Assembly (NCBI GenBank): GCA_907163375.1
Contig: CAJQUW010008605.1
Location: forward strand, 124,001 to 188,000
DNA: 64,000 bases
From: Prostheceraeus crozeri
Lineage: Eukaryota > Platyhelminthes > Polycladida > Euryleptidae
Reading direction: 5' to 3'
The position numbers and the translations under genes are program-made. How positions within the stretch are numbered: position 1 is the first letter of the stretch; each line of letters starts with the position of its first letter. Positions 3,037 to 63,431 of this stretch are shown here, piece after piece. Below the pieces are notes generated by a model. It had not been told where the DNA came from. It was given only the letters and a program-made list of their open reading frames with translations, and made no database searches.

Positions 3037-4692
3037 CAGTCCGTTTCATAAAAAGTGGATCATCCTAAAATTTGACTAAATGAAACATAAGTATGATACA
3101 GAAAGAATTTTTCATGTTATTTCATGTCCCTAATATGTTTAAATGTCCTTATATAATCTGATAAGCTATGATACAGTAACGGTTCTTAAGAAGCTAGTAT
3201 TTTGTGGCCCTACCCTTATTGTCAATGACATTACCAATTCGTCTAGGCATTGATTCGATGATATCGTTGATTTTTGACTGATCTAACTTTCTCCACTCTC
3301 TTTTTAACAGTGACGTAAGTTGTGATACGCCATCTGTAGGTAGCAGCGAACGACGAACGTTACGTTTTAGAATACTCCATACATTTTCTATGGGATTCAG
3401 ATCAGGAGAACGAGCTGGCCAAGATAATGTCATAAGCCCTAATTGAGACTTGCATAAGTTGACTCTACTACTCCTGTGACACGTAGCATTATCATCCATA
3501 AATAACCAAGTCGATTGATCACCAAGTTGATCTGTCATTTGGCCAATGTTCATTCGTAAAACATTCACATAGCGTTCAGAATTCATGGTTCCTTGCTGTA
3601 TGTGAAGTTCAGAGCGGCCATTGGTCCAAATGCCAGCCCAAATCAGTAGAGTCGCACCACCTTGTACCCGGGGACGATGTAAATGTCTCGGAATTTCCTG
3701 ATCAGATTTTATTCATAATCTCAATCGACCATCACTATCCTTCAGACGGACTGATGCCTCATCAGACCAGACAACCCGATCCCATTGATTTCGCCAGTGA
3801 CAATGACTCATTGCCCATCTGAGACGTCTTTTTGTATGCTGATCTGATAATTCGATCTGAGAGGGCCTCTTACAGCTCTTGAAATTCGACTCAATAAGTC
3901 TTCTACGAATAGTGGACTTAGAAATAGACGAGTCTAGTGCAGCCATCTCAGTTAACGAGAGACTTGGATCAACTTCAACAAATCTCAAAATTAGGCGGTC
4001 TCTACGTTTGGATGTTTTGCGTGGACGGCCAGAGCCCTCTTTACGACAGAGTCGAAAATCATCATTATGCCATCGATGCACATTTGTGTAAGGGACATTT
4101 AGTCGCTTGCTTGTAGCTCGCAAAGAAAACCCTAGTTCTAGCAAGGCTGACACTTTGCCTTTTGTGAATGCGATCTCGTTATTGTTCATTTGTGCTTTGT
4201 ATTGTTTTCAACCGGTAGGAGATAGATTTCTAGCTGAAAGCAATCAGGAGTGCTGCCAACACCACCGCAACGAAGTCAGGAAGCTATGGAACATGAAGTC
4301 CAGTTAATCACATGTAGCAGTTACATTATTGTTGATGAATAATGGTGCTATACTGGCTCTGATTGACCGATTTTCTTTATTTTTGTTTTGCTTTATAGCT
4401 TTTGGCTTGTAGAACAACATATTACATAACAAAGGAAACAAATGTAATTTTATAAGAGTGAGGTATGATTTTGTGTAACATTGCTAAATGAAGATCAAAT
4501 TATCTACTACTTTTTTATCTATAACAGGAAAACAACTCAATATTCATGCTTGAAATTTCCAACAATGATATTAGTGAGCACAACTGACATATCTTCCAAA
4601 TTTCAGAGAAATTCGTTCAAGTTTGGCGGAGTTAGACAAAGTTGAAGTTAAGGCGATGTTTAAGGGTGATCCATTTTTTATGAAACAATCTG
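3037..4692 (-). mobile_element. Tc1/mariner-type transposon Tc1-1 (1,656 bp)
   Basis: Imperfect terminal inverted repeats start CAGTCCGTTTCATAAAAAG on the left and CAGATTGTTTCATAAAAAA on the complement of the right end. They are flanked by TA at 3,035-3,036 and 4,693-4,694. The uninterrupted sequence exists in copy B near 29,507 (AATTAAATA then TTGTTTATCTGC), which confirms insertion at a single TA. TA duplication and this size are typical of the Tc1 family. The single gene runs on the minus strand. Confidence 0.95.
3194..4189 (-). pseudogene. Tc1-type DDE transposase, one in-frame stop
   Basis: One continuous minus-strand frame of about 331 codons, the usual Tc1 transposase length, broken only by TGA at 3,713-3,715 (codon ~159), where Tc1-2 encodes Trp. 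The N-terminus has a helix-turn-helix (KGKVSALLELGFSLRATSKR) and a GRPR-like motif (GSGRPRKTSKRRD). Catalytic motifs are WSDEA (first Asp), LFMDDNATCHRS (second Asp) and SPDLNPIENVW (third acidic residue). It would bind the element ends and cut and paste DNA in the nucleus. A single nonsense mutation suggests recent inactivation. Confidence 0.92.
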
Positions 4693-5356: not shown

Positions 5357-7007
5357 CAGTCCGTTTCATAAAAAGTTGATCATCCTAAAATTTGACTAAA
5401 TAAAACATAAGTATGATACAGAAAGCATTTTTCATGTTATTTCATGTCCCTAATATATTTAAATGTCCTTATATAATCTGATAAGCTATGATACAGTAAC
5501 GGTTCTTGAGAAGCTAATATTTTGTGGCCCTACCCTTATTGTCAATGACATTACCAATTCGTCTAGGCATTGATTCGATGATATCGTTGATTTTTGACTG
5601 ATCTAACTTTCTCCACTCTCTTTTTAACAGTGACGTAAGTTGTGATACGCCATCTGTAGGTAGCAGTGAACGACGAACGTTACGTTTTAGAATACTCCAT
5701 ACATTTTCTATGGGATTCAGATCAGGAGAACGAGCTGGCCAAGATAATGTCCTGAGCCCTAATTGAGGCTTGCATAAGTTGACTCTACTACTCCTGTGAC
5801 ACGTAGCATTATCATCCATAAATAATCAAGTCGATGGATCACCAAGTTGATCTGTCATTTGGCCAATGTTCATTCGTAAAACATTCAAATAGCGTTCAGA
5901 ATTCATGGTTCCTTGCTGTACATGTATGTGAAGTTCAGAGCGGCCATTGGTCCAAATGCCAGCCCAAATCAGTAGAGTCGCACCACCTTGTACCCGGGGA
6001 AAATGTAAATGTCTCGGAATTTCCTGATCAGAATTTATCCATAATCTCAATCGACCATCACTATCCCGATCCTCATCAGGCCAGAAAACCCGATCCCATT
6101 GATTTCGGCAGTGACAATGACTCATTGCCCATATGAGACGTCTTTTTGTATGCTGATATGATAATTCGATCTGAGAGGGCCTCTTACAGCTCTTGAAATT
6201 CGACTCAATAAGTCTTCTACGAATAGTGGACTTAGAAATAGACGAGACTAGTGCAGCCATCTCAGTTAACGAGAGACTTGGATCAACTTTAATAAATCTC
6301 AAAATTAGGCGGTCTGTACGTTTGGATATTTTGCGTGGACGGCCAGAGCCCTCTTTACGACAGAGTCGAAAATCATCATTATGCCATCGATGCACATTTG
6401 TGTAAGGGACATTTAGTCGCTTGCTTGTAGCTCGCAAAGAAAACCCGAGTTCTAGCAAGGCTGATACTTTGCCTTTTGTGAATGCGATCTCGTTATTGTT
6501 CATTTGTGCTTTGTATTGTTTTCAACCGGTAAGAGATAGATTTCTAGCTGAAGGCAATCAGGAGTGCTGCCAACACCACCGCAACGAAGTCAGGAAGCTA
6601 TGGAACATGAAGTCCAGTTAATCACATGTAGCAGTTACATTATTGTTGATGAATAATGGTGCTATACTGGCTCTGATTGACCGATTTTCTTTATTTTTGT
6701 TTTGCTTGATAGCTTTTGGCTTGTAGAACAACATATTACATAACAAAGGAAACAAATGTAATTTTATAAGAGTGAGGTATGATTTTGTGTAACATTGCTA
6801 AATGAAGATCAAATTATCTACTACTTTTTTTATCTATAACAGGAAAACAACTCAATATTTATGCTTGAAATTTCCAACAATGATATTAGTAAGCACAACT
6901 GACATATCTTCCAAATTTCAGAGAAATTCGTTTAAGTTTGGCGGAGTTAGACAAAGTTGAAGTTAAGGCGATGTTTAAGGGTGATCCATTTTTTATGAAA
7001 CAATCTG
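5357..7007 (-). mobile_element. Tc1/mariner-type transposon Tc1-2 (1,651 bp), nested
   Basis: Full-length sister of Tc1-1 with the same TIRs and gene orientation. It lies inside the older Tc1 fragment Tc1-3: the TA in TTACTA is the left target, and Tc1-3 resumes just beyond the right end with a few bases lost. The near-identity of Tc1-1 and Tc1-2 indicates one family that was active recently. Confidence 0.92.
5514..6503 (-). pseudogene. Tc1-type transposase, inactivated
   Basis: Same gene as in Tc1-1, about 330 codons. It is broken by TGA at about 5,826-5,828, in place of the Trp that precedes LFMDDNATC. A short in-frame deletion next to the first catalytic Asp changes WSDEASVRLKDSDGR to WPDEDRDSDGR, and there is a two-codon insertion in LHIHVQQG. 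At the site of the Tc1-1 stop this copy is intact (RLRLWINSDQ), so the two copies carry independent lesions. Confidence 0.9.
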
Positions 7008-7374: not shown

Positions 7375-7746
7375 GGACACATTTGCTCTGTAACTGTTTA
7401 ATTCACTCCTGCGTTATACCGAGTCATTGAAAGTCCGGATCATTTATACGTCCTATTCATCTTGAAGACGAAATTTTCACTTATACATTGCAGGTGAGTC
7501 TTGCAAACCATTCGATTGCATTAAGTGTTATTTAAATCTTTATAAATTGATGCTTTAGCGTGATTATGTTTCCGGACCTTCCAATATGACTCTTAAAATA
7601 ACACATGGACCTGAGTGTGAAAGTGTGTGTGTGTATGAGAGAGAGAGAGAGAAGTGCACAGTGGAAATCGGGAACTCAACTGCTGACACACGCTAGGACA
7701 ACACGTTATCAGTTGAAGACGTTGTTAGAGTGAAATCAATCTTAGG

Positions 7747-8066
<320 letters not shown>

Positions 8067-8085
8067 GAGAGATCATCGAATCAAT

Positions 8086-8314
8086 GATATCATCGAATCA
8101 ATGCCTAGACGAATTGGTAATGTCATTGACAATAAGGGTAGGGCCACAAGATATTAGCATCTTAAGAACCGTTACTGTATCATAGCTTATCAGATTACAT
8201 AAGGACATTTAAATATATTAGGGACATGAAATAACATGAAAAATGCTTTCTGTATCATACTTATGTTTTATTTAGTCAAATTTTAGGATGATCCACTTTT
8301 TATGAAACGGACTG
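8086..8314 (+). mobile_element. Tc1 end fragment
   Basis: Reverse complement of the transposase C-terminal end and left TIR of Tc1-1 (the region around 3,037-3,265). It ends ATGAAACGGACTG followed by TA at 8,315-8,316. The inner boundary follows a short duplication of ATCATCGAATCAATG. It may be the far end of the same old insertion as Tc1-3, since both abut the two sides of the same host TA site. Confidence 0.85.
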
Positions 8315-46981: not shown

Positions 46982-48177
46982 GTAAGAATTATTGATGTCA
47001 TTTCGTATTGTATTTGAATTGATCTCTGTATATTGAATACGAAGCCTTGAAGGAGGCAATTATGGTCAGTGATTGCATGAGAAACGTAGATATTTGAGGA
47101 TTGCGTTAGGAATGTCCTCATGGGGCGAAGTCTAAGGTAAAGACCATAGAAATCTGATTCTCAGTAATAGGAAAATAGAGAACCGACATGGACATGAAAG
47201 CAATACTATGTCGTGGGTGTGCATCTAGCCGATGTCGGCTTCCAGCGCCTCACAATGACAGCGGCACTTTGTCAGTGTACTTCGTGAAGGAATTCATTGT
47301 TCAGTTCAATTCAAACTAAAGAAGATGACTTCAACAGTTTTTATAACTGCAAAGGACAGTCAATTTGACCTTCAGCTGTTGAAGCTGACAGCATTCCGTG
47401 TGATATTGCTATTATTCACGTAAAAAGTGCATAGAAGCACTCGTGTATGAATGAGCACGATGATGACAACTTCATTTGCTCTTACTCAATGGTCTATAAC
47501 TGATTCGAATTGATAAAGATGATTATTTTGTAAGAAATTCACAAAATCTGTCGATTTTCAGAAAGTTGTTTAAATCAAAGTTCAAATTTTTCACGAATGC
47601 ATGGGTCAAATTTAATGAAGTTTGGATTGGCTGTCACAAATTCATTTACGCATAATCAATGATCACTTGAAACTGAAGCTGCAGTTATTACAGATCGTGA
47701 TTAATGTCAAAGAAAGCTTTGGGGGAAACACCATGGCTGAGGGCTAATGATTGCATTGACTGTTTTTGCAAAACAATAACATCACCACTTACAAGACATT
47801 GATTAGGAACATGGATGAGGTTTGAGCAATTCATGCGATTTTGTGGACGTATAGATCATTATAAGATTACATGTTGTTGATATGAAAGTCATCTGATCGA
47901 CACATTTCATTAAAAAAGCTGTCAGCTGTCGAATAATGCGTGACACGATTGACACGTTTTTGATCAGCTCTGTAAAACGATAAAAATATTGGCAATTTTG
48001 CAAATGTGCCTTTGAATCTGATTATGTCATATTTGAGCCAATTGTGTCCCGAAGCGTGGCATTAGTGGATAACGATGAAGTCAGCAAAATTTAATATCTT
48101 GATGTCACAGTGTTCTCAGATCACACAGGACACCCACTCTGATGATGATGCTGCGGTTCATTACAATGCTGTGTTTG

Positions 48178-48422
48178 TCAAATCTCAACAGATGTAACCA
48201 CCACGAGATATGTTCGGCAGTGCCTTTCTGGCTAATTCACGCTCTCAACAGATGGTCCGATGGCCTTGTGGTTAGAGGGTATGCTTGCACGTCCTCTTGC
48301 TCCAACGTCGCTGGCTCAAACCTACCCACGACTGATGAGGCCCAACAGGCCGAAACATGTCTCGTGGTGGTTACATTTGCTGAGAATTGATAAATTTATC
48401 AATTGCCAGGTTACTTGTCTTA
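48178..48422 (+). mobile_element. tRNA-box retroposon carrying a hammerhead ribozyme
   Basis: A 245-bp body flanked by perfect 13-bp direct repeats AATGCTGTGTTTG (48,165-48,177 and 48,423-48,435), a target-site duplication of retroposon size. It contains an A-box-like TGGCCTTGTGGTTAGAGGG (48,261-48,279) and a B-box-like GGCTCAAACCT (48,313-48,323) with tRNA-like spacing. The complete hammerhead motif follows directly. A reversed partial copy of the ribozyme's 3' half lies near its start (48,190-48,215). It resembles a SINE or metazoan retrozyme. Confidence 0.75.
48326..48367 (+). ncRNA. type I hammerhead ribozyme
   Basis: All parts are present in order. Helix I strand CCACGA (48,326-48,331); core CTGATGA (48,332-48,338); helix II GGCC, loop CAACA, GGCC (48,339-48,351); core GAA (48,352-48,354); minimal helix III AC, loop AT, GT (48,355-48,360); cleavage-site C at 48,361; helix I return TCGTGG (48,362-48,367). 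Helix I extends past an internal loop by AACC (48,319-48,322) pairing with GGTT (48,369-48,372), the usual place for tertiary contacts with loop II. A very short helix III is known for hammerheads of Penelope-like elements and animal retrozymes. Predicted self-cleavage falls between 48,361 and 48,362. Confidence 0.88.
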
Positions 48423-48423
48423 A

Positions 48424-48520
48424 AATGCTGTGTTTGCAAGAAGTCTTACCGTGCATCTTTGAAGTGCTGTGCTTGTAATTTGTGGGCCCATGAGAAGTGT
48501 GGCATTAGTGAGAAACGATT
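48424..48520 (+). pseudogene. PHD-like zinc-finger fragment
   Basis: One frame reads LKCCVCKKSYRASLKC followed by CACNLWAHEKCGIS, with Cys-x2-Cys, Cys-x2-Cys and Trp-x-His-x2-Cys spacing. PHD-type fingers of this kind occur in ORF1 of some LINEs and in host proteins. The retroposon duplication falls inside the CCVC codons. A similar string (GTGGCATTAGTG) occurs at 48,054, so a partial duplicate lies upstream. Too short to assign further. Confidence 0.4.
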
Positions 48521-48523
48521 TAT

Positions 48524-50132
48524 TATTATTGCAATAACTGCAATTAATATATCAGCATATTTATTACATATTTTATGTCTTAAAGGTTTCCTTTAACCTA
48601 TACTGATACTATTCAACCTATACTGATACACTGACCAATTAAAGATTTTTGACTCAATGATGATTGATTTACACATTGCACAAAACAAAGTAATTGTTCA
48701 TTTTATTAGTCAGAAGCATAATCAGACTTATTAAATGGCATAGCTGTGTAGTGAGTGCATTATTTAACATATTAAAGATAGGTAATTAAAGTAAATTCAT
48801 TTTTGGATAAATGGCGGTTGTCACAGACATTTTAGGTGTTCGATGATAACTGCGTATAGATGTAATATATGAAACATATGATATGTAAAAAACACATGTA
48901 AGCTTGCAGTAAATACAATGTCCGAACTTTATATGCGCGGTTTTTTCAAGCCAAAAATGAAATAGCTAATGACCATCATGTATTTCTTATTTGAAATATT
49001 CTATGAATTGAGTAAAATTTTGGTCTTAACTTCAAGTTCTTATCACATAAGCCCAGTTCTCCTAAGATTCAAATCAACAAATAAATAAATTTTTATAACT
49101 TGATTTGTATATATGCAGCATTACTAGAAGATCGAAACTCAATCGAAGTTTACATGAATGGCGATGTCGTTAAAAGGATCTTGCTTGATCAGACAGCATA
49201 TCAACTGATGTTTGAGGTGCTTGTATTTTTCCCGTGACATTCTCTTTAGTACGAGTATAAGAAACAATCTCTTGTAGCGTGACCTTTCTCCAATCATAGT
49301 GAATAATTGCTCGAGTTGATTTCTCACACTACATAACCGCATGAATATTGTGTGAAATTTCTATGTACATGAAAATAAACACATCTCTACTCTACCTCCC
49401 ATCTACATTGTATTCCCCGCAAATAATATAAGTATTTCAACTGTTTCAGTCTTTGTTTCATGACCCATCACATTCATTCCACCATCTGTCACCGCATACA
49501 TCCCAGCTACTAATTCTTTGATAGTAGAAAAAAAGTTGTAACCCTTTGTAACCTTTTGTAGAAAAAACTTCATCGTGCTTGATTTATATTCTACTTATTT
49601 TATATTTTTTACTCTATATTTCTATATTCTCTTATTGCGCTTTATACGTTGTTATCCTATTTTGTAATATGGGCGAGATTAAGAGACATTATGTCAATCT
49701 ATCAGCATAATCGTAGCATAAGTTGTAGCTTTAGTATCTTTATTTGTTCAACGGCGAACGACAAGTAAGGGCTCAGTGTAAGTAAGGGCGACAAGTTATT
49801 TGCTTCACAAGAGCACTTGTCAGATTATCACTTGTCGGCACTCCAACGAATGAGGCGCATGAGGTGCGGTGCTACCCTCAAATTCAGTTGTGCAAGCAAG
49901 ATGGAAGACGTCAAATTACAACTAGAGGTTGTCACGGCAATTGTTTCTGAGACGATTGCGCAATAGCGGGGCAAACATCAAATTTAAGGTGTCAAGAAGA
50001 AGATGATTAAGATGAATTTTCCTGAAGTCAGTTGTGGAACGACAGGGAAATTAACAATATATTGGAAGGAAACTCCAATTACAGTATCTCAAGGAGTCAT
50101 TATAGTTGTAAAACCTACAAATTGCCTAATTA
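48524..50132. other. intronic AT-rich DNA, no recognised element
   Basis: No coding frame with recognisable features, RNA gene or repeat boundary was found. Confidence 0.35.
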
Positions 50133-50351
50133 CACTCTAAACCAGCACCTCCTAAATCACACACTGAAGCGAGACACTATTCGTAACTAATAAAAAAATC
50201 CTAAAGCAAAGCGTTTTAGGAGGCTAGCGCACTAGTGTTATTGTTCTCTTTAGTATGTCAGCATTCTATTTCACGTAACCTCCTAAAATTCTAGTGTGTC
50301 GCGCTTTAGGATGCAGATTTCTTCGATTTTAGGAGGTGACAGTTTACAGTG
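50133..50351 (-). mobile_element. 219-bp MITE, copy a
   Basis: Ends CACTCTAAACCAGCACCTCC and, on the complement, CACTGTAAACTGTCACCTCC form ~26-bp imperfect TIRs. Flanked by TA on both sides (50,131-50,132; 50,352-50,353). Opposite orientation to copies b and c. No coding capacity. Confidence 0.92.
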
Positions 50352-50649
50352 TACGAATGCTTCTAAGTCAGCCTTAAATAGATCTGAGGATTATTGAATA
50401 ATGTAATACTCGTGAATGCTAAAATTGTAAATAATTAAAATGGTAGGCCTATCCTAAACTATATACATGAATGACAAAGGATACAAATACAGAAATGAAA
50501 AAACATCTTTTAGCTCCAATTTGATATTGTGCCTATAGATTATATCAGAGAATATTAGAAAATACATATTTGACAACATATTGGTCTAGAGCAGTGTGCT
50601 ATCTCATTGTTAGATAATAGAGTAGGACAAAATGTTAGAGTAGGCATAA

Positions 50650-51617
50650 CCATCCAATAGTCTCGCATAGCCTTCGTCAAAACACAGAATCCCCAAAAGG
50701 CTTAGTTGGAGTGCCATAAAAACTCAAATTAGTAATTCATTAGATGAGCATGTTACAAAAATAAGTAAGAAAGAGAAGCATGAGGCTACTTTATTCTCAG
50801 CGTGGAAATCAAGAATCATGGCACTGATTAAAGATCGAATATATCTTGCCAAGAACTCTTTGAATAGATTTCGCGTACACATTAATCGACACAAGATTGA
50901 TGTCAAAATGGGTAAAAATCTGAAAGAATTGCAGAATGACGTCATAATTACGCCAGTTGATAAAGCATCTAATAATTATGCCTTCATTTGCAAAAAGTTT
51001 TATCTCCAAATTCTCTTAGCCGAGTTGAGAAATGATATTTCCACGTCGAACATATCGGGTAATGATACCTATGGTCCAGAGCAAATTTTAGCGCAGCATG
51101 TAATTGAGCAACATATACAACAATTATGAAAAGCGAGTTTAAACTATCTGTCTGTGAAAAAGACAGAAAATTACCAAAATCATATTGGATTCCAAAATTT
51201 CACAAAACTCCATGCAAATTTAGATTCATAGCAGGAGCACGACAATGCACATCGAAAGAGCTTTCCATCAAAGTAAACTCAGCCTTAAGTATTTTGCGTG
51301 ACAATTTTCAGAAATATTGTATGGCAATTATGAGAAACAGCGGTTTCGATTGTTTCTGGAGTATAAAGTCCACACAAGAATTTCTACACAGATTAAATTC
51401 GACGCAAGTTCATTCATTGCAAGTTTTCGATTTTTCAACCTTATATACGAATCTTGATCAAAAATTGATTGAAGATCACATATTCGCTATTATGGATTTG
51501 GTGTTTAATTCCTCAAATAGAAAATTTATTTGCATTGGATATGATAAGTCCTTTTGTTCAATGAAAAAATATAATGGCTATCACTGTTTTGATAAACAGA
51601 AGTTAAAAGAAGCCATG
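50650..51617 (+). pseudogene. Penelope-like element 1, N-terminal and RT part 1
   Basis: Frames give HVTKISKKEKHEATLF, ALIKDRIYLAKNSLNRFRVH, DVIITPVDKASNNYAFICKK, KSYWIPKFHKTPCKFRFIAG and LQVFDFSTLYTNLDQKLIED. The order KLHK(T/N)P...RFI and (D/T)F(S/T)TLYT.(L/I) is that of Penelope-like reverse transcriptases. A stop near 51,127 and small lesions split the frame. The first ~30 bases differ from the second copy at 55,457 onward, so the 5' part is truncated or rearranged. It is cut by MITE copy b at 51,618. Confidence 0.85.
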
Positions 51618-51836
51618 ACTGTAAACTGTCACCTCCTAAAATCGAATAAATCTGTATCCTAAAGCGCGACACACTAGAATTTTAGGAGGTTGCGTGAAAT
51701 AGAATGCTGACATACTAAAGAGAACAATAACACTAGTGCGCTAGCCTCCTGAAACGCTTTGCTTTAGGATTTTTTTTATTAGTTACGAATAGTGTCTCGC
51801 TTCAGTGTGTGATTTAGGAGGTGCTGGTTTAGAGTG
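51618..51836 (+). mobile_element. 219-bp MITE, copy b, inside the RT gene
   Basis: ACTGTAAACTG to GGTTTAGAGTG; about one base at the left end is lost. It interrupts the Penelope-like RT between KLKEAMT and the TYVTFGN motif. The target duplication is unclear (possibly AC). Confidence 0.9.
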
Positions 51837-52500
51837 ACATTTCCTATTATCACAGACCTACGTCACATTCGGTAATTTAGTTTTCAGGCAGATTGAAGGC
51901 ATTTCAATGGGAGGAAATTCTAGTCCACTTCTAGCTGACCTATTCCTCTTACACTGCGAATATGTTCTTATGCAAAATTTGATAAAAACTAAGAAATATC
52001 ATTTAGCACGCTTGTTATCACCTACATCAAGATACATAGACGACATATGTGTTGTCAATTATAAAAACTTTAATTAATTCGTTGATTCAAAGAACGATCC
52101 ACCTGACTTGTTGGCGGAGAGAAATGGTGATAACAATAAAGAGGTAGTCTACCTTGATGTGAAAATACAAATCTCACAGAACAGCTTGAGAACTTCCGTA
52201 TATCACAAAGTAGATGACTTCTCTTTCTTTGTGGTGCAACTGACTTTCCAGAGAGCATGATCCCATTACAAATCTTCATGTTTTCGCGTCGCAAGTAGTC
52301 AGATATTGTAGAATATGCTCGAAGTTACAAGACGCATTACGCAAAACTAACAAGACAATAAATATCATGAAATCCAGAGGTTATTCTCAGCATGACTTGA
52401 TGAGTTACACAGAAAAGGCTCTCACAAGGCATAATGAATCGCTTAACAAATATGGTCTTTTCTCGGCTCGACAATTCACTTCACTCTGTGAATTTCAATG
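51837..52500 (+). pseudogene. Penelope-like element 1, RT part 2 and thumb
   Basis: After the MITE the frames give TYVTFGNLVFRQIEGISMGG, NSSPLLADLFLLHCEY, SRYIDDICVV and, further on, GYSQHDLMSYTEKALTRHN and ESLNKYGLFS. The YIDD box is the RT catalytic core (the usual form in this class is (R/Y)(Y/F)(I/V)DD). FGN..FRQ..GI.MG is diagnostic for Penelope-like enzymes. Several frame changes and a stop at about 52,077 show decay. Confidence 0.85.
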
Positions 52501-52613
52501 AGGCACGCGACCAACAAACGATTCACATTTTCCTTAATCCCTTGCTGCATAGGTGAATAAACGACTAACAATGACTTGTAGACATCACATGGGGGCGGTG
52601 AAGAGTGAATACA

Positions 52614-52832
52614 CACTGTAAACTGTCACCTCCTAAAATCGAAGAAATCTGCATCCTAAAGCGCGACACACTAGAATTTTAGGAGGTTGCGTGAAATAGA
52701 ATGCTGACATACTACAGAGAACAATAACACTAGTGCGCTAGCCTCCTAAAACGCTTTGCTTTAGGATTTTTTTATTAGTTACGAATAGTGTCTCGCTTCA
52801 GTGTGTGATTTAGGAGGTGCTGGTTTAGAGTG
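52614..52832 (+). mobile_element. 219-bp MITE, copy c
   Basis: CACTGTAAACTG to GGTTTAGAGTG, flanked by CA on both sides (52,612-52,613; 52,833-52,834). Same orientation as copy b. Confidence 0.92.
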
Positions 52833-54279
52833 CAGAGCGCTTTGCGTGGCTTACGGGAGATGAGAGAGCTCCCATTGTTAAGTCTTGATGCATGAGGCGA
52901 AGTTTGTGTAAAGGCGGATTACATATTTATCACACAGCGATTACATCTTTATGGGATTCGAGGATGAACAGGATCTGTTTACTTGTGGGAATCGAAAAGG
53001 CAAAGATTGATGTACAGGATTTGTTTACATGTGCGGATCGCAAAAAGCATACTGTATTTATTGATGGGATGAATTTAATGACAGGATGAGTTTACATGTA
53101 GGATACGTAACAATTGAATGATGTCTGATTTATCTTTGTGACATATCTTTCAGGACATATCATTACCTATTCAGTATTTTGTCAGCCACAATGTGTGAGA
53201 TTCCGCTCGTCTGGGTTTGAGTGTTCAGGTTAGGGGTCGAAACACAACTAGACGAGTACCTACTGATGACTGACGGACTGCAGTATTATGTTTTATATCC
53301 CTTAATCGGTAACTGAAGTAGTGGTCGATGTATTGTAATTCAAATGAAGAAATGTGGAATTACATGAATTATTGTAGACGGATGAAGAAACTGGCGATAA
53401 CAAATTCAAGTGAAGAAATAGTATTTTCCATGTGTAGTCTTAGGTATAGTGTGTATGGTTTCATTGCTTTCGGTGTAGTAGAGTGTCATTGTAGTTCTAT
53501 TGTCTACCTCGATTATCCACTTTCCACTTATCAACTCTTACCATTATCCACTTTGTGTAGTGTCAGATATAGTTCACTTGTAATCGGTGCAGTAGCATCG
53601 TTGTGTTTCCATATTTTACCTCCACTTTTCCAATTTTTACTCATCGGTTTCCTGTTGTTTTATAATATCCATTTTTAATTTCCTTAACCTATGGTGACCA
53701 TTGTCCTATTCTGTTTCCACTATCAGCATTTGTAGTCGGTACAGTATATTAGACGTCTGCTTTGAACGTGTATGCGGCAGTGTTTGGAATATATGGTATT
53801 AGTATATTAACAGCAAGAATGAGTAGTAAGCTTAATACAAGTCTTAAGATTTCCATTTTTACCAGATATTAGGCCAAAGCTGATCAATTTTAATTCGTTG
53901 CCACGAGAAAGCTCCATTGAGTTCTTTTAAGAACTGATTAATCCAATGGTTACAGTAGCATTGTCTTTGTACACTTTCGGATTGGAGAATGCCATCAGTC
54001 TTCATTAGGACTACTTTAACTAATAATTTGAATTAGTAAGCATTATATTCTATTATAAATGGCTGCTGGTATGACTTTTATCATCGTATGAGAATTACTT
54101 GGATAGTATGTCTTCAGATGCAGGTGGTTTCACGACCCAGCTACTGGACCTCTGCTAGCTGGCGAAATGCCTAATTTGTCCCACATCTTAATAATTATCA
54201 TACATTGTCACTTAGGCTCAAATGCCAATAGATAGCATGAATTTGAAAGTCCAACCTCGGCAAATTCCTCGCTCTTTTT
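52833..54279. other. insert between the RT and endonuclease parts
   Basis: Interrupts the Penelope-like element. 52,960-53,115 is a degenerate minisatellite of ACAGGATTTGTTTACATGTG-type units (four). 53,430-53,760 has TAGTGTCAGATATAG and GTAGTAGAGTG-like words repeated imperfectly. No credible gene was found, including the 116-codon frame at 53,328. Confidence 0.4.
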
Positions 54280-55131
54280 GAGGCTTTGGCAAATTTTCTC
54301 ATGGTTTACTATATGGTACGAAAAATGTTCAGCGTTAATGCGAAGGAGTGGATAGCGCCCTCTAATTTGAAAAACATTAGATTTTGTGGTAGCAATAGCT
54401 GTCTTTGCTGTAAATCTTTGAATAACGAAAATTGCTACGAAAGTTTTAGTACAGGCAACCGGTTTATCTTTGATCAGCCAAGTGTTTTTACTTGTAAAAG
54501 TAGAAATGTTATTTATCTTATATCATGTAGCAGATGTGAAATGCAATATGTAGGACAAACAAAGCAACCGCTACATTGTAGATTAAATGGTCATCGTCAT
54601 TCAGTATTAAAAGGTCACTTAAACACATATCTTAGCAATCACTTTAAGCAAGATCATCATTCTTGGACTGATGTTGAATTGCAAATTTGTGATCATGTTG
54701 GTGACAATATATACCCATCACCGGAAGAGATAACCAGAGAGCTCAACCGCAAGGAAAACATGCATATCAAGATGCTCAATACCTTATACCCTTTGGGTTT
54801 GAATGATTGAATTTTGGGAGGTGGATGTGTATCTCAGCAGTCTATATCCAATGATCAATTTTTTAGTTATCCGATTAGCAGACGAAAAAGGAGTCATGGA
54901 ATAAGAAAATCGGGTAGAAAAAGCTCAAGTATTATGGAACTTGACAATACTTATCAAGAATTGCAAGATTATTTTGAGACGCGTAGGATGTCAAAGTTTT
55001 ATCATCATCTAAAATCTCTCCCTAAAACTATGCTAAGAGCCATTCTAGGCAAGACAAGGGATGAGGCAAACATGATGACACTTGTACTAACAGAATGCAT
55101 TCAAAATAAACTTACCGGTAACCTAGACTCG
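54280..55131 (+). pseudogene. Penelope-like element 1, GIY-YIG endonuclease and C-terminus
   Basis: The frame gives WIAPSNLKNIRFCGS, CLCCKSLN, VIYLISCSRCEMQYVGQTKQ and LHCRLNGHRHSVLKG: the Cys-x2-Cys linker and GIY-YIG nuclease (VIYLI...YVGQT, Arg and His downstream) that nick target DNA in these elements. TGA at 54,808-54,810 follows LYPLGLND. The same frame continues ILGGGCVSQQS and RRKRSHGIRK, which matches my memory of the longer C-terminus of many Penelope-like proteins, so the stop is probably a point mutation. It ends at 55,131-55,133. Confidence 0.88.
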
Positions 55132-55149
55132 TAGAACAAAAATGTAAAA

Positions 55150-55745
55150 GAACTAGCAACCATGATCATCCCGTTCGAATCTCAGACAACAGACTCACTC
55201 AATCCCATGTCTATATTCTGCGATCACAGTGTGTGCAAGCTTATTCCAAACACAATTCAAGAACGTTATCCACCGAAAATATAATATAAATTAGATAAAC
55301 CCACTGCATTAAAGTTTTGAAATTATGGGCGTTTTTTGAATAACCTGAAGTTTCAGGATGTGATCCACATCATGAACAATCCATGCTCATGTAGCAAGAG
55401 GTAATCCTTTGTTTACCGACATTATGGTCACGTAACATTATGGTGATCTGGATATTGTGGATGATGAAGACTTACGTCAACTCGTCAGTTTTGGTACCAA
55501 ACACAGAATCCCCAAAAGCCTTAGTTGGAATGCCATAAAAACTCAAATTAGTAATTCACTAGATGAGCATGTTACAAAAATAAGTAAGAAAGAGAAGCTT
55601 GAGGCTACATTCTACTTTATTCTCAGTGTGGAAATCAATAATCATGGCACTGATTAAAGATCGAATAGATTTCGCGCACACAGTAATCGACACAAGATTA
55701 ATGTCAAAATGGGTAAAAATCTGAAAGAATTGCACGCACAGTTCT
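55150..55745 (+). pseudogene. Penelope-like element 2, N-terminal fragment
   Basis: Starts about 20 bases after element 1 ends. Frames give YKLDKPTALKF, NYGRFLNNLKFQDVIHIMNN, PCSCSK, YRHYGHV, VDDEDLRQLVSFGTKHRIPK and SLSWNAIKTQISNSLDEHVT. The last part is a close copy of 50,667-50,945. The Cys-x-Cys followed by HGHV(I/T) is the conserved N-terminal motif of this class. Head-to-tail arrangement is common in Penelope-like elements. It is truncated at about 55,745. Confidence 0.75.
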
Positions 55746-56015
55746 TCAATTTGCTTCATATTTGTTCTAATATAAGAAAAGCAGAATCAATTCCTTTTTT
55801 CCAAATAATCTGTATGCAACTAGAGAAGAATGCCTGAAGATTAATTTCATTAAAACCTTCTCTAACGCATACTTATCTACTAATTACTTAAGATTGTACA
55901 CGAAAGAAAAAAATGCAAGAGTCAAAAAAGATAGAATATATTATGTCAATTCATTGTAGAAAGTCAGTAAAAAAGTGAGCACACGAAGTAATTCTTGAAG
56001 TTATTCTACTCAATC

Positions 56016-56768
56016 TCAACTGTAAAGTAGTAGGGTTTGTCGTAAGAAGAAGAAGGGTCCCTTATGAAAAATCCTCCGCGGGATTCTACGCAAATTCTTT
56101 TCTTCTATCTCTAATGCTTTCATGTTATTTTTTGAAGTTCTAAAATATGTTGCTACAGCCATCAGTTCTGTTTTCCATGCTCTTAGTTCTGGAACTGAGC
56201 TCATCATATCCTCAGTTGCAAGGTCAGTCCTGTGAGTGCAGCACCAAATAGTTAGCAATTTTCTGTCAAAATGGTTGTTGAGTCGACGCCACAGACCTGC
56301 TCTTCTCCCTGTATTGGCAGATTCTCCGTCTGTTGTGATACCTGCACATTTAGACACATCAAGTTTTAAGTTTTTCATGACTGACAGAAGGCTTTGTAGA
56401 AGTCCCTGAGCTCCGGCGCTGTCTGGACAATGCAGTCCCAAAAATACAGTTTTGAGTTCAAGCTCTTTTGTGAGTAGGCGAGCACACTTGTTGTCTCGCA
56501 TTGTCTTCGAAACAGATCCGTCAATCTGAATAGAAAAGACTATGCATTCGCGAAGACAGATGACTAGTCTCTTCTTTTCCTGTCTTGCGACACAGGATAG
56601 CATTTCAGCATAATTATTTGGATCCCTGTAATGCAGTTGAGAAACCTCTGGTTCATAAGCTCGAACTTCACAATCATATCCTTCTGCATCTATTCTTGTC
56701 AGAAATCGATCGGATGCAAGTTGCGTTAGAGATGAGTGCGCGCAGTGATTGATGCAAAAGGAGGCCAT
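56016..56768 (-). pseudogene. hAT-like transposase (KIAA1586-like), catalytic part
   Basis: About 250 codons. Motifs are FSIQIDGSVSKTMRDNKCAR (first Asp region), LKLDVSKCAGITTDGESANT (the hAT 'TDG' segment), NHFDRKLLTIWCCTHRTDLA (CxxH) and ATYFRTSKNNMKALEI. The combination is that of hAT-derived, KIAA1586/ZMYM6-like proteins frequent in invertebrate genomes. The C-terminal dimerisation domain is missing and the frame ends at YS-stop, so it is truncated. The N-terminal part lies at 57,028-57,747 with about 260 bases in between. Confidence 0.75.
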
Positions 56769-58420: not shown

Positions 58421-60123
58421 ATATTTTTTGCTTGATACATGTGGAGTGATATTTAACTAGATAAGATTTATTGTGAATTTTACGCTCCACGAGATTGACG
58501 TCTTTGCTACTTGTCTAGCAATATTAATATATATCGTCGTATCTTTTATTGAATATGTTAGTGCAGACCTTGTTAAGAAAGAAAATTCACATACTCGAGA
58601 AAGAAAACGCCACGGTTTTGATTGAGGCTTGTTTATTTGCTGGCAACAAATGTGGCCAATGGCCAGTAACGTAAGCAAAATTTTCCACAAGCTCACCAAA
58701 AGTTATTTGGAATGATAAAGGGCTTTGCATTCCAAATGCAGGGGGACGTTGCATTTCTCGCATGTTAGAGTTGTACGCCGTCCACAGTCTTTGCAACGGC
58801 AGTATCGTGGTGATGCTCGAACCAAGTCGTGGCCAGTTCCATCTGTACGCACGGCATCTGCCGATGCTCATCGAAGAATCGACGGCCGCCCACCGACCCT
58901 CGGTTGAGTGCTGTACGTTGAGACTAATTGCTGCACAATTTGTCGTTGAAATTGAAGCAAAGTCGTCTTCTTATTCTCAACACGGCGAAACAGAATCCAA
59001 CCGTTTACCATCGCAGCGGTCAAGCCCCATCCCAAGAAAGGTCACCACCATTTTTTTGATCTTAGACGAATTCGGTATGTTGCCACAAATTGGTCGAATA
59101 AGTCAACACCTCCCATTTTGTCGTCGTAAATCTGCAGAGGAAAAGGCATTGAAACATCAAATCGTTTTCTATCTTTTCTTGAAAAACGGCGAACGACCTT
59201 TGTGAGCCCACAAGGCAAATAGTTTGTGGCCACTGTCGCAGCTTTGTTATCATTCCAGCGAACCAACATATTTGTGCCATCATGAACGCTTTCAAACGTC
59301 CCCCTTGTCTTTTTTTCCATCTCCTTCTTTGGCGTTACGGGAGCTTTCTGCAGTCTGTTGTCCCTTATTGTTCCCTCAGCATCAATCTTTTTTTCTGCCA
59401 GTTTATCTAGCAACGGCAACGACGTGAAGAAATTGTCAAACGTAAGTGCGCATCCTTTCGTTGACAGAAGATTTCTCCAGCAATCCAATGCCCACATCAG
59501 ATCCTCGACCATTTCCTGTCGTCGGGAAGTCGGTGTGTCCGCCACAATACGGCTCCGTGTGTAGGAGATAGCCATCCGTCGAGGTCATCAAACACCATAA
59601 TTTATAGCCAAAGCGGATCGGCTTGTCTCTGACGAACTGCTTTGTACCATGCCGACCATAGTAGGGGATAATGCTTTCGTCCACACTGAAGTCGATGTAT
59701 GCTGCACATGACTTGAAAGCCTCGTTCAAAATGCGAAACATGGGCCTAACCTTGTAATAGCGGTCATTATTCATTTGCATGTTGTCAGCCATGTGAATGT
59801 AACGAAAAACTTCTCGAAACCGATTTCGTCGCATAGCGTTGGTAACGAAGCTCTGATGTGAATGTGGCGATAGTTCCCAGTACATGTCTGTAGTAGGTAG
59901 ACGCGCGCAACCTGTTAGATGCAATAACCCAATAAACGTGAGCATTTCGTTTGTCACTGGATCGAAGTTTTCATTTGATAGTGCTGCATACAGGTTAGTC
60001 CGTTCCACCAGATGGACAATGAAGGTTTCCGGAAACACTTTTTTGAAGGCCGCCATCTCAGAATCGATTGAATTACTGATTTCTGGACTCAAATCTTGAG
60101 ATCCTCTCACATCAACAGTTGGC

Positions 60124-60670
60124 CTGAAACAAATAAATAAACATGTCAGTTTGCAGTGTAGCTTGAGTGCTAATCAATTCACATTTACATGTAAGCCAAT
60201 ACGTATCAAGGTATAAAGTATATTGTGAAAGAGCATATACATGCACTGGATATGTAAACGTAAGTCCACTTATGAAGTATATACGAACGCTTTAAAGAAA
60301 TATAGTTTACGTATACAATGTAAAATATATTACATTTTATATGTTTATGCATCAAGCATTAGTTTATAGGACTATATTATACAGAACAATTATATAATCC
60401 ATTTCATACATTGTAGAGGCCAGCATGTTATATTGGGGCAGCCAAAAAATTCGTTTTTTCTTAACTTGGATGTATTCAAACATACGCTCGTACAACTATG
60501 ACAGTGTTATGAGGATCAATAACTAACAAAGCTTATACATATCGTAGGGGGTCACGTGAACAGTCACAGTGCGAAATTAGGCGCGTTTAGAAATACGAGA
60601 AAAGAAACGATTTTTTGCCGGCCCCTATACATACGAGCGCTCGTACATGTATATGTGTCTTTTCTCTTAC
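60124..60670 (-). other. intron of the piggyBac gene
   Basis: 547 bases with consensus GT and AG ends and a pyrimidine-rich TTTATTTATTTGTTTCAG. The join gives Arg-Pro in frame. It contains a ~191-bp inverted-repeat element. Confidence 0.75.
60435..60625. mobile_element. ~191-bp MITE candidate in the piggyBac intron
   Basis: Ends GGGGCAGCCAAAAAATTCGT and, on the complement, GGGGCCGGCAAAAAATCGTT. TAT-containing sequence flanks both ends but the duplication is not exact. A 14-bp palindrome TACGAGCGCTCGTA lies just outside at 60,632-60,645. Confidence 0.55.
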
Positions 60671-61830: not shown

Positions 61831-62593
61831 GGAATGCCACGAAAACAATGATGTCAAGTGGAAGGCATCAAATTAAAGATGCATGCATGTTTACAACTGC
61901 ATGTTTCAAAATGATATGATTGTGAGCTGCAAATGATTTATTTGAGACTAAATCCAGGTGCATGAGTTACAATAAAAGTGAACATGGAGAATAGAGATCA
62001 TATACCATAACAATTGCAGAGGAGGCGCTCCCAGATGATGAAATGAGAGACGATTTCAACAGAATTCTAGTCAGTATGAGTACTACACTGTAAATCGATC
62101 AATACCAATCACATGCGAAGGATGTATACCAAAATATTTTTTTGGCATATTTCTGTATATATTTGTATGCTTTTCGTATGTTATTTCAAGTGTGGCAGGC
62201 TTTACATACTAAAGCCATTATGTTAAAAGAAAGCATCAATTATGTCTAAAGCATGTTGATTTAAGGCCCTTTGTCAATAAAGATAACACTAATGTTACTG
62301 CTGTTTTGTAAGTAGTGAAATAATGACATTAAAGAGTCAACCTCTCAATACTGAATTCGATTTTAATACATGTAAGACATTTCATAAATAATAAATAAGT
62401 ATTCAACCATCAACAATGATGCATCATTTAATTTTGAAATTCAGCATATTATCAATCCGAAATAAAAGCACATTATAATTCATGAATGCAAACATAGTTA
62501 TGTTTCAGATTTATAAGTCAACATGGAAGCATAATGAACCCGAAGACTCCCGCTCTTTACCTTGTCATCTAAAAAAGTGCTCTCATTTTACAG
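61831..62593. other. intronic DNA before the Kunitz exon
   Basis: AT-rich, with a decayed CACTGTAAAT repeat start at 62,088. The pyrimidine-rich acceptor TCATTTTACAG is at 62,583-62,593. No other feature seen. Confidence 0.4.
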
Positions 62594-62785
62594 CAAATGT
62601 CTGTGTCCTACCAAGGGTCACAGGACCCTGTCGCGCTAGTTTAACGAGATATTATTTTGACTCTGAAAGACAACGATGTCAAGGATTTTTGTATGGAGGC
62701 TGTCAAGGAAATGACAACAACTTCCTCACACGTGCAGCATGCATGCAGCGCTGTGGAAATATTTCTTCACGAAGAGTTCCTGAAC
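62594..62785 (+). CDS. Kunitz/BPTI domain exon
   Basis: A 192-base exon between TTTTACAG and C|GTAAGT, phase 1 at both ends as is classic for Kunitz exons. It encodes NVCVLPRVTGPCRASLTRYY, FDSERQRCQGFLYGGCQGND and NNFLTRAACMQRCG. The six Cys have canonical spacing (8, 15, 7, 12 and 3 residues between), giving three disulfides. The residue after the second Cys is Arg, the P1 position, predicting trypsin-like protease inhibition. FxYGGC and the paired Asn (NN.F) are family hallmarks. Secreted if joined to exon 1 at 46,912. Further exons are expected beyond 62,785 but none is seen before the window ends. Confidence 0.93.
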
Positions 62786-63431
62786 GTAAGTTTGAGCTCG
62801 CATTTGACCTTAATATTCAAAATTCAGTCACTTTCAGTTTTCAATTCACCTATGGGAGCAGTTAGTCTGCTGTGTTCATTTGCTTAATTATGACATTGGA
62901 GCATAAATGACAGAAATTAACAAAATCAAAGCACGACAAAACAATAGGTCTAATTGAAGACTTAACGACACACCATGAAGATTGTCAGAGAGGTCGAGGA
63001 AAGTGGTAAGGTAGTAAGCGTGCGCCAATTCAAATGTTGCATCTGAACATGTGCAATGAATATCGAAAGCTTAGAACAGGAGAAATTTCAATGAAGAAGA
63101 CACAGTATGGAGACATTTTCGAATCTACAGGAAACACGGATGAGGCAGCCAATGACCTGTAATTAATATAATTATGTAAAATCAATGAAGCCATATTGAG
63201 TAGGGTGCGGCGATGTTTTATTTTCCCCAACGATCGATTTAATTTCGATTTTTCAGAAAATTTTCGATTTTTTTGTAAACCAAAAACGAAATCATTTCAA
63301 AACAGTCTGAGCTTTACTTTCTAATACGTGTAAGTGGGCGATACATGTATGACAAACGTCTTAAAATTTCGGCCAATACTGAATCATATGAAAGCATATT
63401 GTGAAGTCTAATTAGAAAAACGCATTACCCC
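62786..63431. other. downstream intronic or flanking DNA
   Basis: No second Kunitz exon or poly-A context that closes the gene was recognised. An A/T-rich TTTTTCGATTTTT tract lies at 63,225-63,280. Confidence 0.35.

What the first reader, a model, noticed from the sequence alone, without database searches (positions are those of the whole stretch)
48178..48422. SINE-like retroposon with a complete hammerhead ribozyme and 13-bp target duplication
Every conserved hammerhead nucleotide and all three helices are present at 48,326-48,367, with an extended helix I. It sits directly after tRNA-like A and B boxes in a 245-bp body flanked by perfect AATGCTGTGTTTG repeats. Hammerheads are known in Penelope-like elements, satellites and retrozymes, but a pol III-promoter SINE with an embedded ribozyme is uncommon and could generate self-cleaved or circular RNA.
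Basis: partly seen in the sequence, partly recalled or inferred. Interest (0 to 1): 0.85.

Follow-up and report, generated by a model that had tools for sequence, protein, structure and literature searches.

The report
Ribozyme retroposon carrying Penelope insertion marks
A short repeat with a self-cutting RNA motif, present in thousands of copies in this animal genome, carries insertion scars typical of Penelope-type jumping genes, which points to the machinery that copies this kind of element.

Summary
The hammerhead is real and belongs to a large family, but the 245-bp "SINE" is one reduced copy of a 303-bp tandem element. The genome holds 2,017 exact ribozyme cores against 0 for the reversed pattern. 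Copies occur as tandem units and head-to-head inverted arms: in the window 48174-48218 is an inverted stub of the ribozyme's 3' part and 48217-48423 is the direct part. None of 10 sampled copies of the flanking repeat holds the insertion.

Insertions have two kinds of outer end, about 27 nt apart and both past the ribozyme cut; 39 of 41 classifiable head-to-head loci have one of each, often with 8-17-bp target duplications. This is the inverted-copy-plus-"tail" signature published for Penelope-like elements (PMC3846280, PMC11167929). Hammerhead-bearing Penelope-like elements lie in the same genome.

Best reading: a metazoan retrozyme, probably pol III-driven, copied by Penelope-type machinery from circular or uncleaved multimeric RNA. 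A 2020 review called that partner likely but knew no motif identifying it and no promoter (PMC7761336). Self-cleavage, circles and transcription are untested; the partner element was not found.

The parts
48165..48177 (.). left target-site duplication AATGCTGTGTTTG (9-13 bp; the last TTTG may belong to the element's end)
48174..48218 (-). inverted stub: minus arm of the insertion, unit positions u33 back to u291, outer end of type B
48217..48423 (+). direct arm, unit positions u159 to u61, outer end of type A
48253..48263 (+). best-scoring A-box-like site of the pair (TGGTCCGATGG); an alternative is TGGCCTTGTGG at 48261-48271
   Evidence: score of the pair 15 of 17 in this copy; consensus recalled; the A box is not more conserved than the rest
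48313..48322 (+). B-box-like site GGCTCAAACC (GGTTCAAACC in the family)
48326..48367 (+). type I hammerhead ribozyme, predicted cut between 48361 and 48362 (u303 and u1)
48388..48403 (+). palindrome TTGATAAATTTATCAA downstream of the ribozyme; type B ends of insertions fall near its centre
48424..48436 (.). right target-site duplication AATGCTGTGTTTG

Best explanation
The window holds one reduced insertion of a non-autonomous hammerhead retrozyme family. The family unit is 303 nt, without a long frame, with a likely internal pol III-type promoter and no run of four T's (sequence shown; transcription inferred). Transcripts of tandem copies would be cut by the hammerheads into 303-nt monomers that a host ligase closes into circles (inferred from published retrozymes). 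A Penelope-type reverse transcriptase/endonuclease cuts AT-rich DNA, often a TA repeat, and each of the two broken strands primes copying of retrozyme RNA at one of two internal start sites, near u34 on one side and near u61 on the other. The two cDNAs run towards each other and are joined, leaving head-to-head arms of variable length between short target duplications (ends, arms and duplications shown; enzyme and order of steps inferred). Arms run through the ribozyme cut site, up to about eight turns, so the usual template was a circle or an uncleaved multimer. In the window the minus arm is a 45-bp stub and the plus arm is less than one unit; the sister copy L009 has three ribozyme-bearing units.
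For: 2,017 exact cores against 0; nine cut sites at eight spacings of exactly 303 bp in L014. Of 76 loci analysed, 49 are head-to-head and 0 tail-to-tail; 39 of 41 with both outer ends classifiable have one A and one B end, 20.5 expected if independent. Target duplications of 8 bp or more in 25 of 41 loci without TA repeats against 7 of 200 mispaired flanks; a TA repeat at a boundary in 35 of 76. None of 10 paralogous target sites holds the element. Published Penelope signature: inverted pLTR, 31-bp tail, 9-bp duplication, head-to-head (PMC3846280, passages); two adjacent internal start sites that explain the tail, both strands cut, AT-rich targets (PMC11167929, parts 1-3 of 4). In the same genome: Penelope-type hammerheads 134 + 140 against 14 + 29 reversed, an 830-aa frame with RVT_1 (E 5.2e-14) beside such hammerheads, and a short head-to-head insertion of that family with an 11-12-bp duplication and unlike ends (L097).
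Against: No partner element sharing the start-site region was found. The excess of one-turn arms that circles would predict is not significant (9 of 49, P 0.25), so circles are not distinguished from uncleaved multimers. The A-box result is partly post hoc, the A box is not specially conserved (P 0.27) and the hammerhead as a whole is not either (P 0.14). In vitro, ribozyme mutants did not affect insertion by a Penelope-like protein (PMC11167929). The two start sites were not strand-specific there, whereas here the two flanks differ. GC is 50.5%, a little above the <50% reported for animal retrozymes. No RNA data.
Confidence: 0.77

Rival explanations
1. An ordinary tRNA-derived SINE moved by a LINE, in which the hammerhead is a passenger and the inverted stub is a twin-priming accident.
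For: Short, without a long frame, A/B-box-like sites, target duplications.
Against: 49 of 76 loci are head-to-head with overlapping arms, and the two flanks end at two fixed, unlike positions in 39 of 41; classical twin priming inverts without duplicating (recalled). 303-bp tandem multimers. No simple-sequence tail at the right ends printed, apart from TA-repeat targets. No tRNA recognised.
Confidence: 0.08
2. A solo or internally deleted pLTR of one particular Penelope-like element rather than an independent retrozyme.
For: Same layout of hammerhead, start sites, head-to-head arms and duplication as L097/L106.
Against: No similarity of the unit to the Penelope-like stretches read beyond the ribozyme core and matches of chance size; CGAAACATGTC instead of CGAAACGTC; tandem arrays of exactly 303-bp units without coding sequence. 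Only a few of the many Penelope-like families were read.
Confidence: 0.1
3. A foldback or MITE-like DNA element with terminal inverted repeats.
For: Inverted arms near both ends and a strong fold of the window copy (-96 kcal/mol).
Against: Arms are unequal, inner joins vary, direct-only copies of about one unit exist, the two outer ends differ by about 27 nt, and duplications vary in length.
Confidence: 0.03
4. A satellite repeat spread by unequal exchange or extrachromosomal circles of DNA, with the ribozyme of no use.
For: Long tandem arrays of nearly identical units (L014).
Against: Dispersed insertions with target duplications, uninterrupted sites, fixed ends; ribozyme core intact in 56 of 66 copies.
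Confidence: 0.02

Closest known systems
Metazoan (non-LTR) retrozymes (Cervera and de la Pena 2020, PMC7229834)
   Same: Type I hammerhead, about 170-400-nt unit without a long frame, tandem copies, target duplications longer than 4 bp, co-existence with Penelope-like elements.
   Different: Here an A/B-box pair inside the unit, head-to-head inverted arms with two fixed unlike ends, preference for TA repeats; the words inverted and head-to-head do not occur in the main text of that paper. GC 50.5%. Circular RNA not tested.
Smalpha / Sjalpha SINE-like hammerhead retroposons of schistosomes
   Same: SINE-like short retroposon with a type I hammerhead (described so in PMC8490949, passages).
   Different: Smalpha sequence and insertion ends were not available here; the original papers are not held and their pol III promoter is recalled only.
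Penelope-like elements (canonical, hammerhead in pLTR), e.g. L106 in this genome
   Same: Hammerhead upstream of two alternative cDNA start sites, tail on one flank, head-to-head inverted arms, target duplications around 9-12 bp, AT-rich targets.
   Different: The retrozyme unit has no RT or endonuclease frame (longest stop-free stretch 70 codons); its helix III has CAUG where Penelope-type cores read GAAACGTC.
tRNA-derived SINEs
   Same: Short, dispersed, A/B-box-like sites.
   Different: Tandem units, no recognisable tRNA, Penelope-type ends.
Newt and axolotl hammerhead repeats
   Same: Very weak helix III closed by a palindromic tetraloop (PMC7229834).
   Different: Unit 303 bp instead of 330-350 bp; no sequence comparison was made.

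Membership tests
metazoan retrozyme | type I hammerhead | tested here: met
   helix III minimal, Rfam score under gathering
metazoan retrozyme | small (about 170-400 bp) tandem unit without coding sequence | tested here: met
   303 bp
metazoan retrozyme | target duplications longer than 4 bp | tested here: met
   8 bp or more in 25 of 41 loci without TA repeats, null 7 of 200
metazoan retrozyme | low GC content (<45-50%) | tested here: inconclusive
   50.5% in the consensus unit
metazoan retrozyme | expressed as linear and circular RNA with self-cleavage | not testable with these tools
   no RNA data
tRNA-derived SINE | internal pol III promoter (A and B box) | tested here: inconclusive
   16 of 17, 3 of 2,000 shuffles after 446 of 2,000 with another A motif; B box less mutated (P 0.0015), A box not (P 0.27)
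tRNA-derived SINE | recognisable tRNA-like head | tested here: not met
   ARAGORN and Rfam
tRNA-derived SINE | LINE-type ends: 3' tail shared with a LINE or simple repeat, 5' truncation | tested here: not met
   two fixed internal start positions on opposite flanks; no LINE was searched for
Penelope-like element | frame with RT (and usually GIY-YIG endonuclease) | tested here: not met
   longest stop-free stretch 70 codons
Penelope-type insertion (works like) | head-to-head inverted partial copy | tested here: met
   49 of 76 loci, 0 tail-to-tail
Penelope-type insertion (works like) | about 30-bp tail on one flank only | tested here: met
   39 of 41 with unlike ends about 27 nt apart, 1 A/A, 1 B/B
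Penelope-type insertion (works like) | AT-rich target | tested here: met
   flanks 71% AT; TA repeat at 35 of 76; window 62% AT
Penelope-type insertion (works like) | identified partner element starting at the same sites | tested here: inconclusive
   hammerhead-bearing Penelope-like elements present, none with a shared start region among those read

The most novel reading that the evidence does not exclude
This is the missing link for animal retrozymes: a self-sufficient pol III transcription unit whose hammerhead makes a 303-nt circle, the circle being the template of a Penelope-type enzyme that primes from both broken DNA strands at two fixed start sites, so that each insertion again carries promoter, ribozyme and start sites in tandem. 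It would be a SINE-like parasite of Penelope rather than of a LINE.
Probability: 0.4. Interest if true: 0.8.

Novelty: new variant of a known kind. Interest (0 to 1): 0.62.

Why it matters
Which enzyme moves animal retrozymes has been an open question. A 2020 review names Penelope-like elements and Terminons as likely candidates from co-occurrence and shared hammerheads, and says that no conserved motif reveals the partner and that promoters seem absent (PMC7761336, sections 8 and 9). The end signature found here ties a retrozyme family to the published start-site behaviour of a Penelope-like enzyme (PMC11167929) and offers a family with thousands of copies, two mapped start sites and a candidate promoter on which the cycle can be tested. 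It is also a natural data set on how Penelope-type machinery treats the two strands of its target. In nine full-text searches of open-licence papers I saw no listing that reports this signature for retrozymes; subscription journals and preprints were not searchable.

Tried and rejected
Rfam at gathering thresholds gave nothing in the window; the sub-threshold match came in E-value mode. A first A/B-box motif was not significant (446 of 2,000 mononucleotide shuffles); the second, with a variable D-loop gap, was chosen after that, so its 3 of 2,000 dinucleotide shuffles is partly post hoc. A one-turn excess of cDNA arms, expected for circular templates, was not significant. Stops at the ribozyme cut, expected for linear cleaved templates, were not in excess either: 3 of 122 inner ends, 5.2 expected. 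The Penelope-like element inside the window has its GIY-YIG domain before the RT-like part, and no hammerhead was found in 49000-56500 or in L095, so it is a poor partner candidate. A pattern joining a Penelope-type hammerhead half to the retrozyme tail found 6 places (1 in the control): 2 retrozymes, 3 of a small palindromic element with a degenerate core (L107-L109) and 1 other, not read. Six 451-bp stretches upstream of Penelope-like RT hits, of 150 hits listed, held no hammerhead by my expression and no shared tail; they may start too far downstream. A resemblance of u13-u36 to a stretch of L106 lies inside its coding frame and was taken as chance. Scans of viral contigs and genome contigs for the core gave 0. 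PDB and Pfam with the window RT-like fragment found no relative; GIY-YIG matched only weakly, below cut-off. For L106 Pfam finds RVT_1; its C-terminal GIY-YIG part is called by eye, Pfam did not list it. The host was not identified beyond animal (COX1 with 8 TGA).

Rows set aside before counts: L014 (array ends not held), L009 and L010 (sister copies of the window insertion) and L062 (two insertions), leaving 76 of 80; pieces under 29 bp and second clusters in L038 and L078. L065 and L066 are probably one duplicated insertion (same duplication); counted once, 39 of 41 becomes 38 of 40. L057 and L058 are neighbouring stretches and may be one broken insertion. Conservation counts leave out L014, L009 and L010, and one search takes at most three units per locus. 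The Fisher tests are uncorrected and treat related copies as independent.

Full report
What is there. The sequence at 48326-48367 has the complete type I hammerhead core: CCACGA / CTGATGA / GGCC-CAACA-GGCC / GAAA-CATG-T-C / TCGTGG, cut predicted between 48361 and 48362. The Rfam model HH9 aligns over its full length at 33.7 bits, E 7.3e-07, under its gathering score of 52 (none at gathering). The weak point is helix III, a single A-U pair capped by CAUG, a palindrome. PMC7229834 describes a helix III of one pair and a palindromic tetraloop in axolotl HHR_Amex1, which cleaves poorly as a monomer and well as a dimer.

The body is composite. Positions 48174-48218 are an inverted copy of 48349-48394 (87% identity). 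In the fold of the whole body this stub pairs with the ribozyme region, and forcing the hammerhead costs about 25 kcal/mol (-71.4 against -96.4). In a transcript starting at 48244, as an internal pol III promoter might give (start assumed), the cost is about 1.6 kcal/mol (-50.5 against -52.1).

The family. The genome (2,048,925,868 bases, 14,165 contigs) gave 1,034 candidates, 40 scored, 114 printed matches, and 2,017 exact cores (1,104 + 913) against 0 + 0 for the reversed pattern. The unit is 303 bp: L014 shows nine cut sites at eight spacings of exactly 303 bp, the eight units identical but for one base in one of them. I number it from the cut (u1 = 48362). The window insertion has two sister copies on the same contig in duplicated flanks (92-95% identity): L010 has the same short form, L009 has three ribozyme-bearing units. 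In the sample found by similarity to the window copy (a query that includes the ribozyme but does not demand it intact), the catalytic core is intact in 56 of 66 copies and in at least one copy at 35 of 37 loci.

Insertions. I mapped 80 loci: the window and 39 found by similarity plus 40 taken from the head of the exact-core list. Four were set aside. Of 76, 49 are head-to-head and none tail-to-tail; the rest are one-armed. Outer ends fall mostly at u57-71 (type A..TTACTTGTCTTAA|) or u28-43 (type B..GAGATTTGATAAAT|). Of 41 head-to-head loci with both ends classifiable, 39 have one of each, 1 is A/A and 1 B/B; 20.5 unlike pairs would be expected (P 4e-10; loci not fully independent); the other 8 head-to-head loci have an end of neither class. 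Alignment ends in TA repeats can run some bases into the flank, hence the broad classes. A shared stretch of 8 bp or more at the two boundaries occurs in 25 of 41 loci without TA repeats, in 19 of 25 of the head-to-head ones, and in 7 of 200 mispaired flanks. A TA repeat of 8 bp or more lies at a boundary in 35 of 76; flanks are 71% AT. For the window copy empty sites are visible: part of the left flank is an old interspersed repeat (35 matches to the flank query). None of the 10 further copies that I read holds the retrozyme; 9 continue into the right flank with the target sequence present once, and L110 diverges just past the site.

Template. Arms started at A (66) or B (56) run through the ribozyme cut, up to 2,507 nt; 3 of 122 inner ends lie within u297-u6, 5.2 expected. 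So linear cleaved monomers were not the usual template. Circles and uncleaved multimers remain. A one-turn excess, which would favour circles, is not significant (9 of 49, P 0.25), although direct copies of almost exactly one turn exist (L028, L034, L046, L077).

Penelope. PMC3846280 (passages) describes Penelope copies with an inverted pLTR at the head, a 31-bp tail optionally present on one of the inverted pLTRs, a 9-bp duplication, and head-to-head as the most frequent arrangement. PMC11167929 (parts 1-3 of 4) shows that a purified Penelope-like protein cuts both strands of AT-rich DNA and starts reverse transcription at two adjacent internal sites, the stretch between them being the tail. 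It also reports that ribozyme mutants do not affect insertion in vitro and that start sites do not differ between strands, which does not match the strict pairing seen here. The retrozyme's ends have this form, about 27 nt apart, near 34 and 61 nt past the ribozyme cut. In this genome a pattern for Penelope-type minimal hammerheads gives 134 + 140 matches against 14 + 29 reversed. One family has an 830-aa frame beside its hammerheads (L106) with Pfam RVT_1 at E 5.2e-14; its C-terminal GIY-YIG part is my reading by eye. A search with 203 residues of it printed 150 matches of 25,291 candidates. L097, a short insertion of the same family, shows a head-to-head pair, ends near 19 and 42 nt past its cut, and an 11-12-bp duplication (read by eye). 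I take this as good evidence that the retrozyme is copied by Penelope-type machinery. The particular partner was not found.

Promoter. The unit has the B box GGTTCAAACC, mutated less than the rest (20 of 1,345 against 761 of 27,412 base cells, P 0.0015), while the A box is not (P 0.27). In the similarity sample CTGATGA is less mutated (5 of 478 against 401 of 14,278, P 0.008), and so is the 5' strand of helix I (2 of 264, P 0.022), but GAAA (P 0.16) and the hammerhead as a whole (P 0.14) are not. The box pair scores 16 of 17 (A at u195, B at u255), reached by 3 of 2,000 dinucleotide shuffles and by no place in the 64-kb window, after a first motif gave 446 of 2,000. No tRNA is recognised. The longest T run is three, so pol III would not be stopped inside an array (inference). 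A pol III promoter is thus probable, not shown. Box consensus sequences are recalled.

Novelty. SINE-like hammerhead elements of schistosomes (cited in PMC8490949, passages) and animal retrozymes (PMC7229834, parts 1-4 of 6) are known, and PMC7761336 already says that animal retrozymes could be regarded as a novel family of SINEs (section 9). The same review says that retrozymes seem to have no promoters and no motif that names their partner, and calls Penelope-like elements and Terminons likely candidates (sections 8, 9). The paired end signature and the internal A/B boxes address both points. Hence: new variant of a known kind. Confidence in the best explanation is 0.77, a little lower than I would give without the in vitro result that start sites there were not strand-specific.

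Noticed in passing
50671-55734: Fragments of a tandem Penelope-like element with the GIY-YIG domain before the RT-like part (clade name Naiad recalled, not tested). It is very abundant: 4,750 candidates, 150 scored, many stop-free frames of about 947 codons in arrays of about 4.35 kb.
   Followed up: partly
50133-50352, 51618-51836, 52613-52832: Three copies of an approximately 220-bp element with imperfect terminal inverted repeats, MITE-like, one in the opposite orientation.
   Followed up: no
48078-48164 and 48432-48520: The retrozyme sits in an old interspersed repeat (about 80% identity among copies) whose frame reads like a Cys-rich PHD-type finger (by eye: DYKCCVCKKSYRASLKCCSC.LWAHEKCG), so possibly coding sequence of another mobile element.
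   Followed up: partly
L104 and L100: Minisatellites whose short unit (about 41 bp in L104) repeats hammerhead-like cores such as CTGATGAGTCCCTCCAAGACGAAAC: tandem mini-hammerhead satellites.
   Followed up: no
L107, L108, L109: A small palindromic, partly decayed element with a hammerhead half (CGAAACGTC) and a TTACTTGTC motif like the retrozyme's tail, without the CTGANGA core by my expression.
   Followed up: partly
G000:C46:47576-59868: Three retrozyme clusters at a constant spacing of 5,833 bp: a larger tandem repeat that carries the retrozyme along.
   Followed up: no
3194-4207, 5826-6521, 59042-60173: DNA transposon remnants: Tc1/mariner-type (HTH_Tnp_Tc3_2 for 3713-4207; the others by eye) and DDE_Tnp_1_7 (piggyBac-type) for 59436-60173.
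   Followed up: no
62479-62865: A Kunitz/BPTI domain frame (Pfam E 7.5e-21).
   Followed up: no
7697-8185: A GA/CT dinucleotide array of some 350 bp that gives long Arg-Glu and Ser-Leu frames.
   Followed up: no
L096: In the contig with COX1 a COX2-like frame lies directly upstream on the same strand, an order that I recall as unusual in animals.
   Followed up: no
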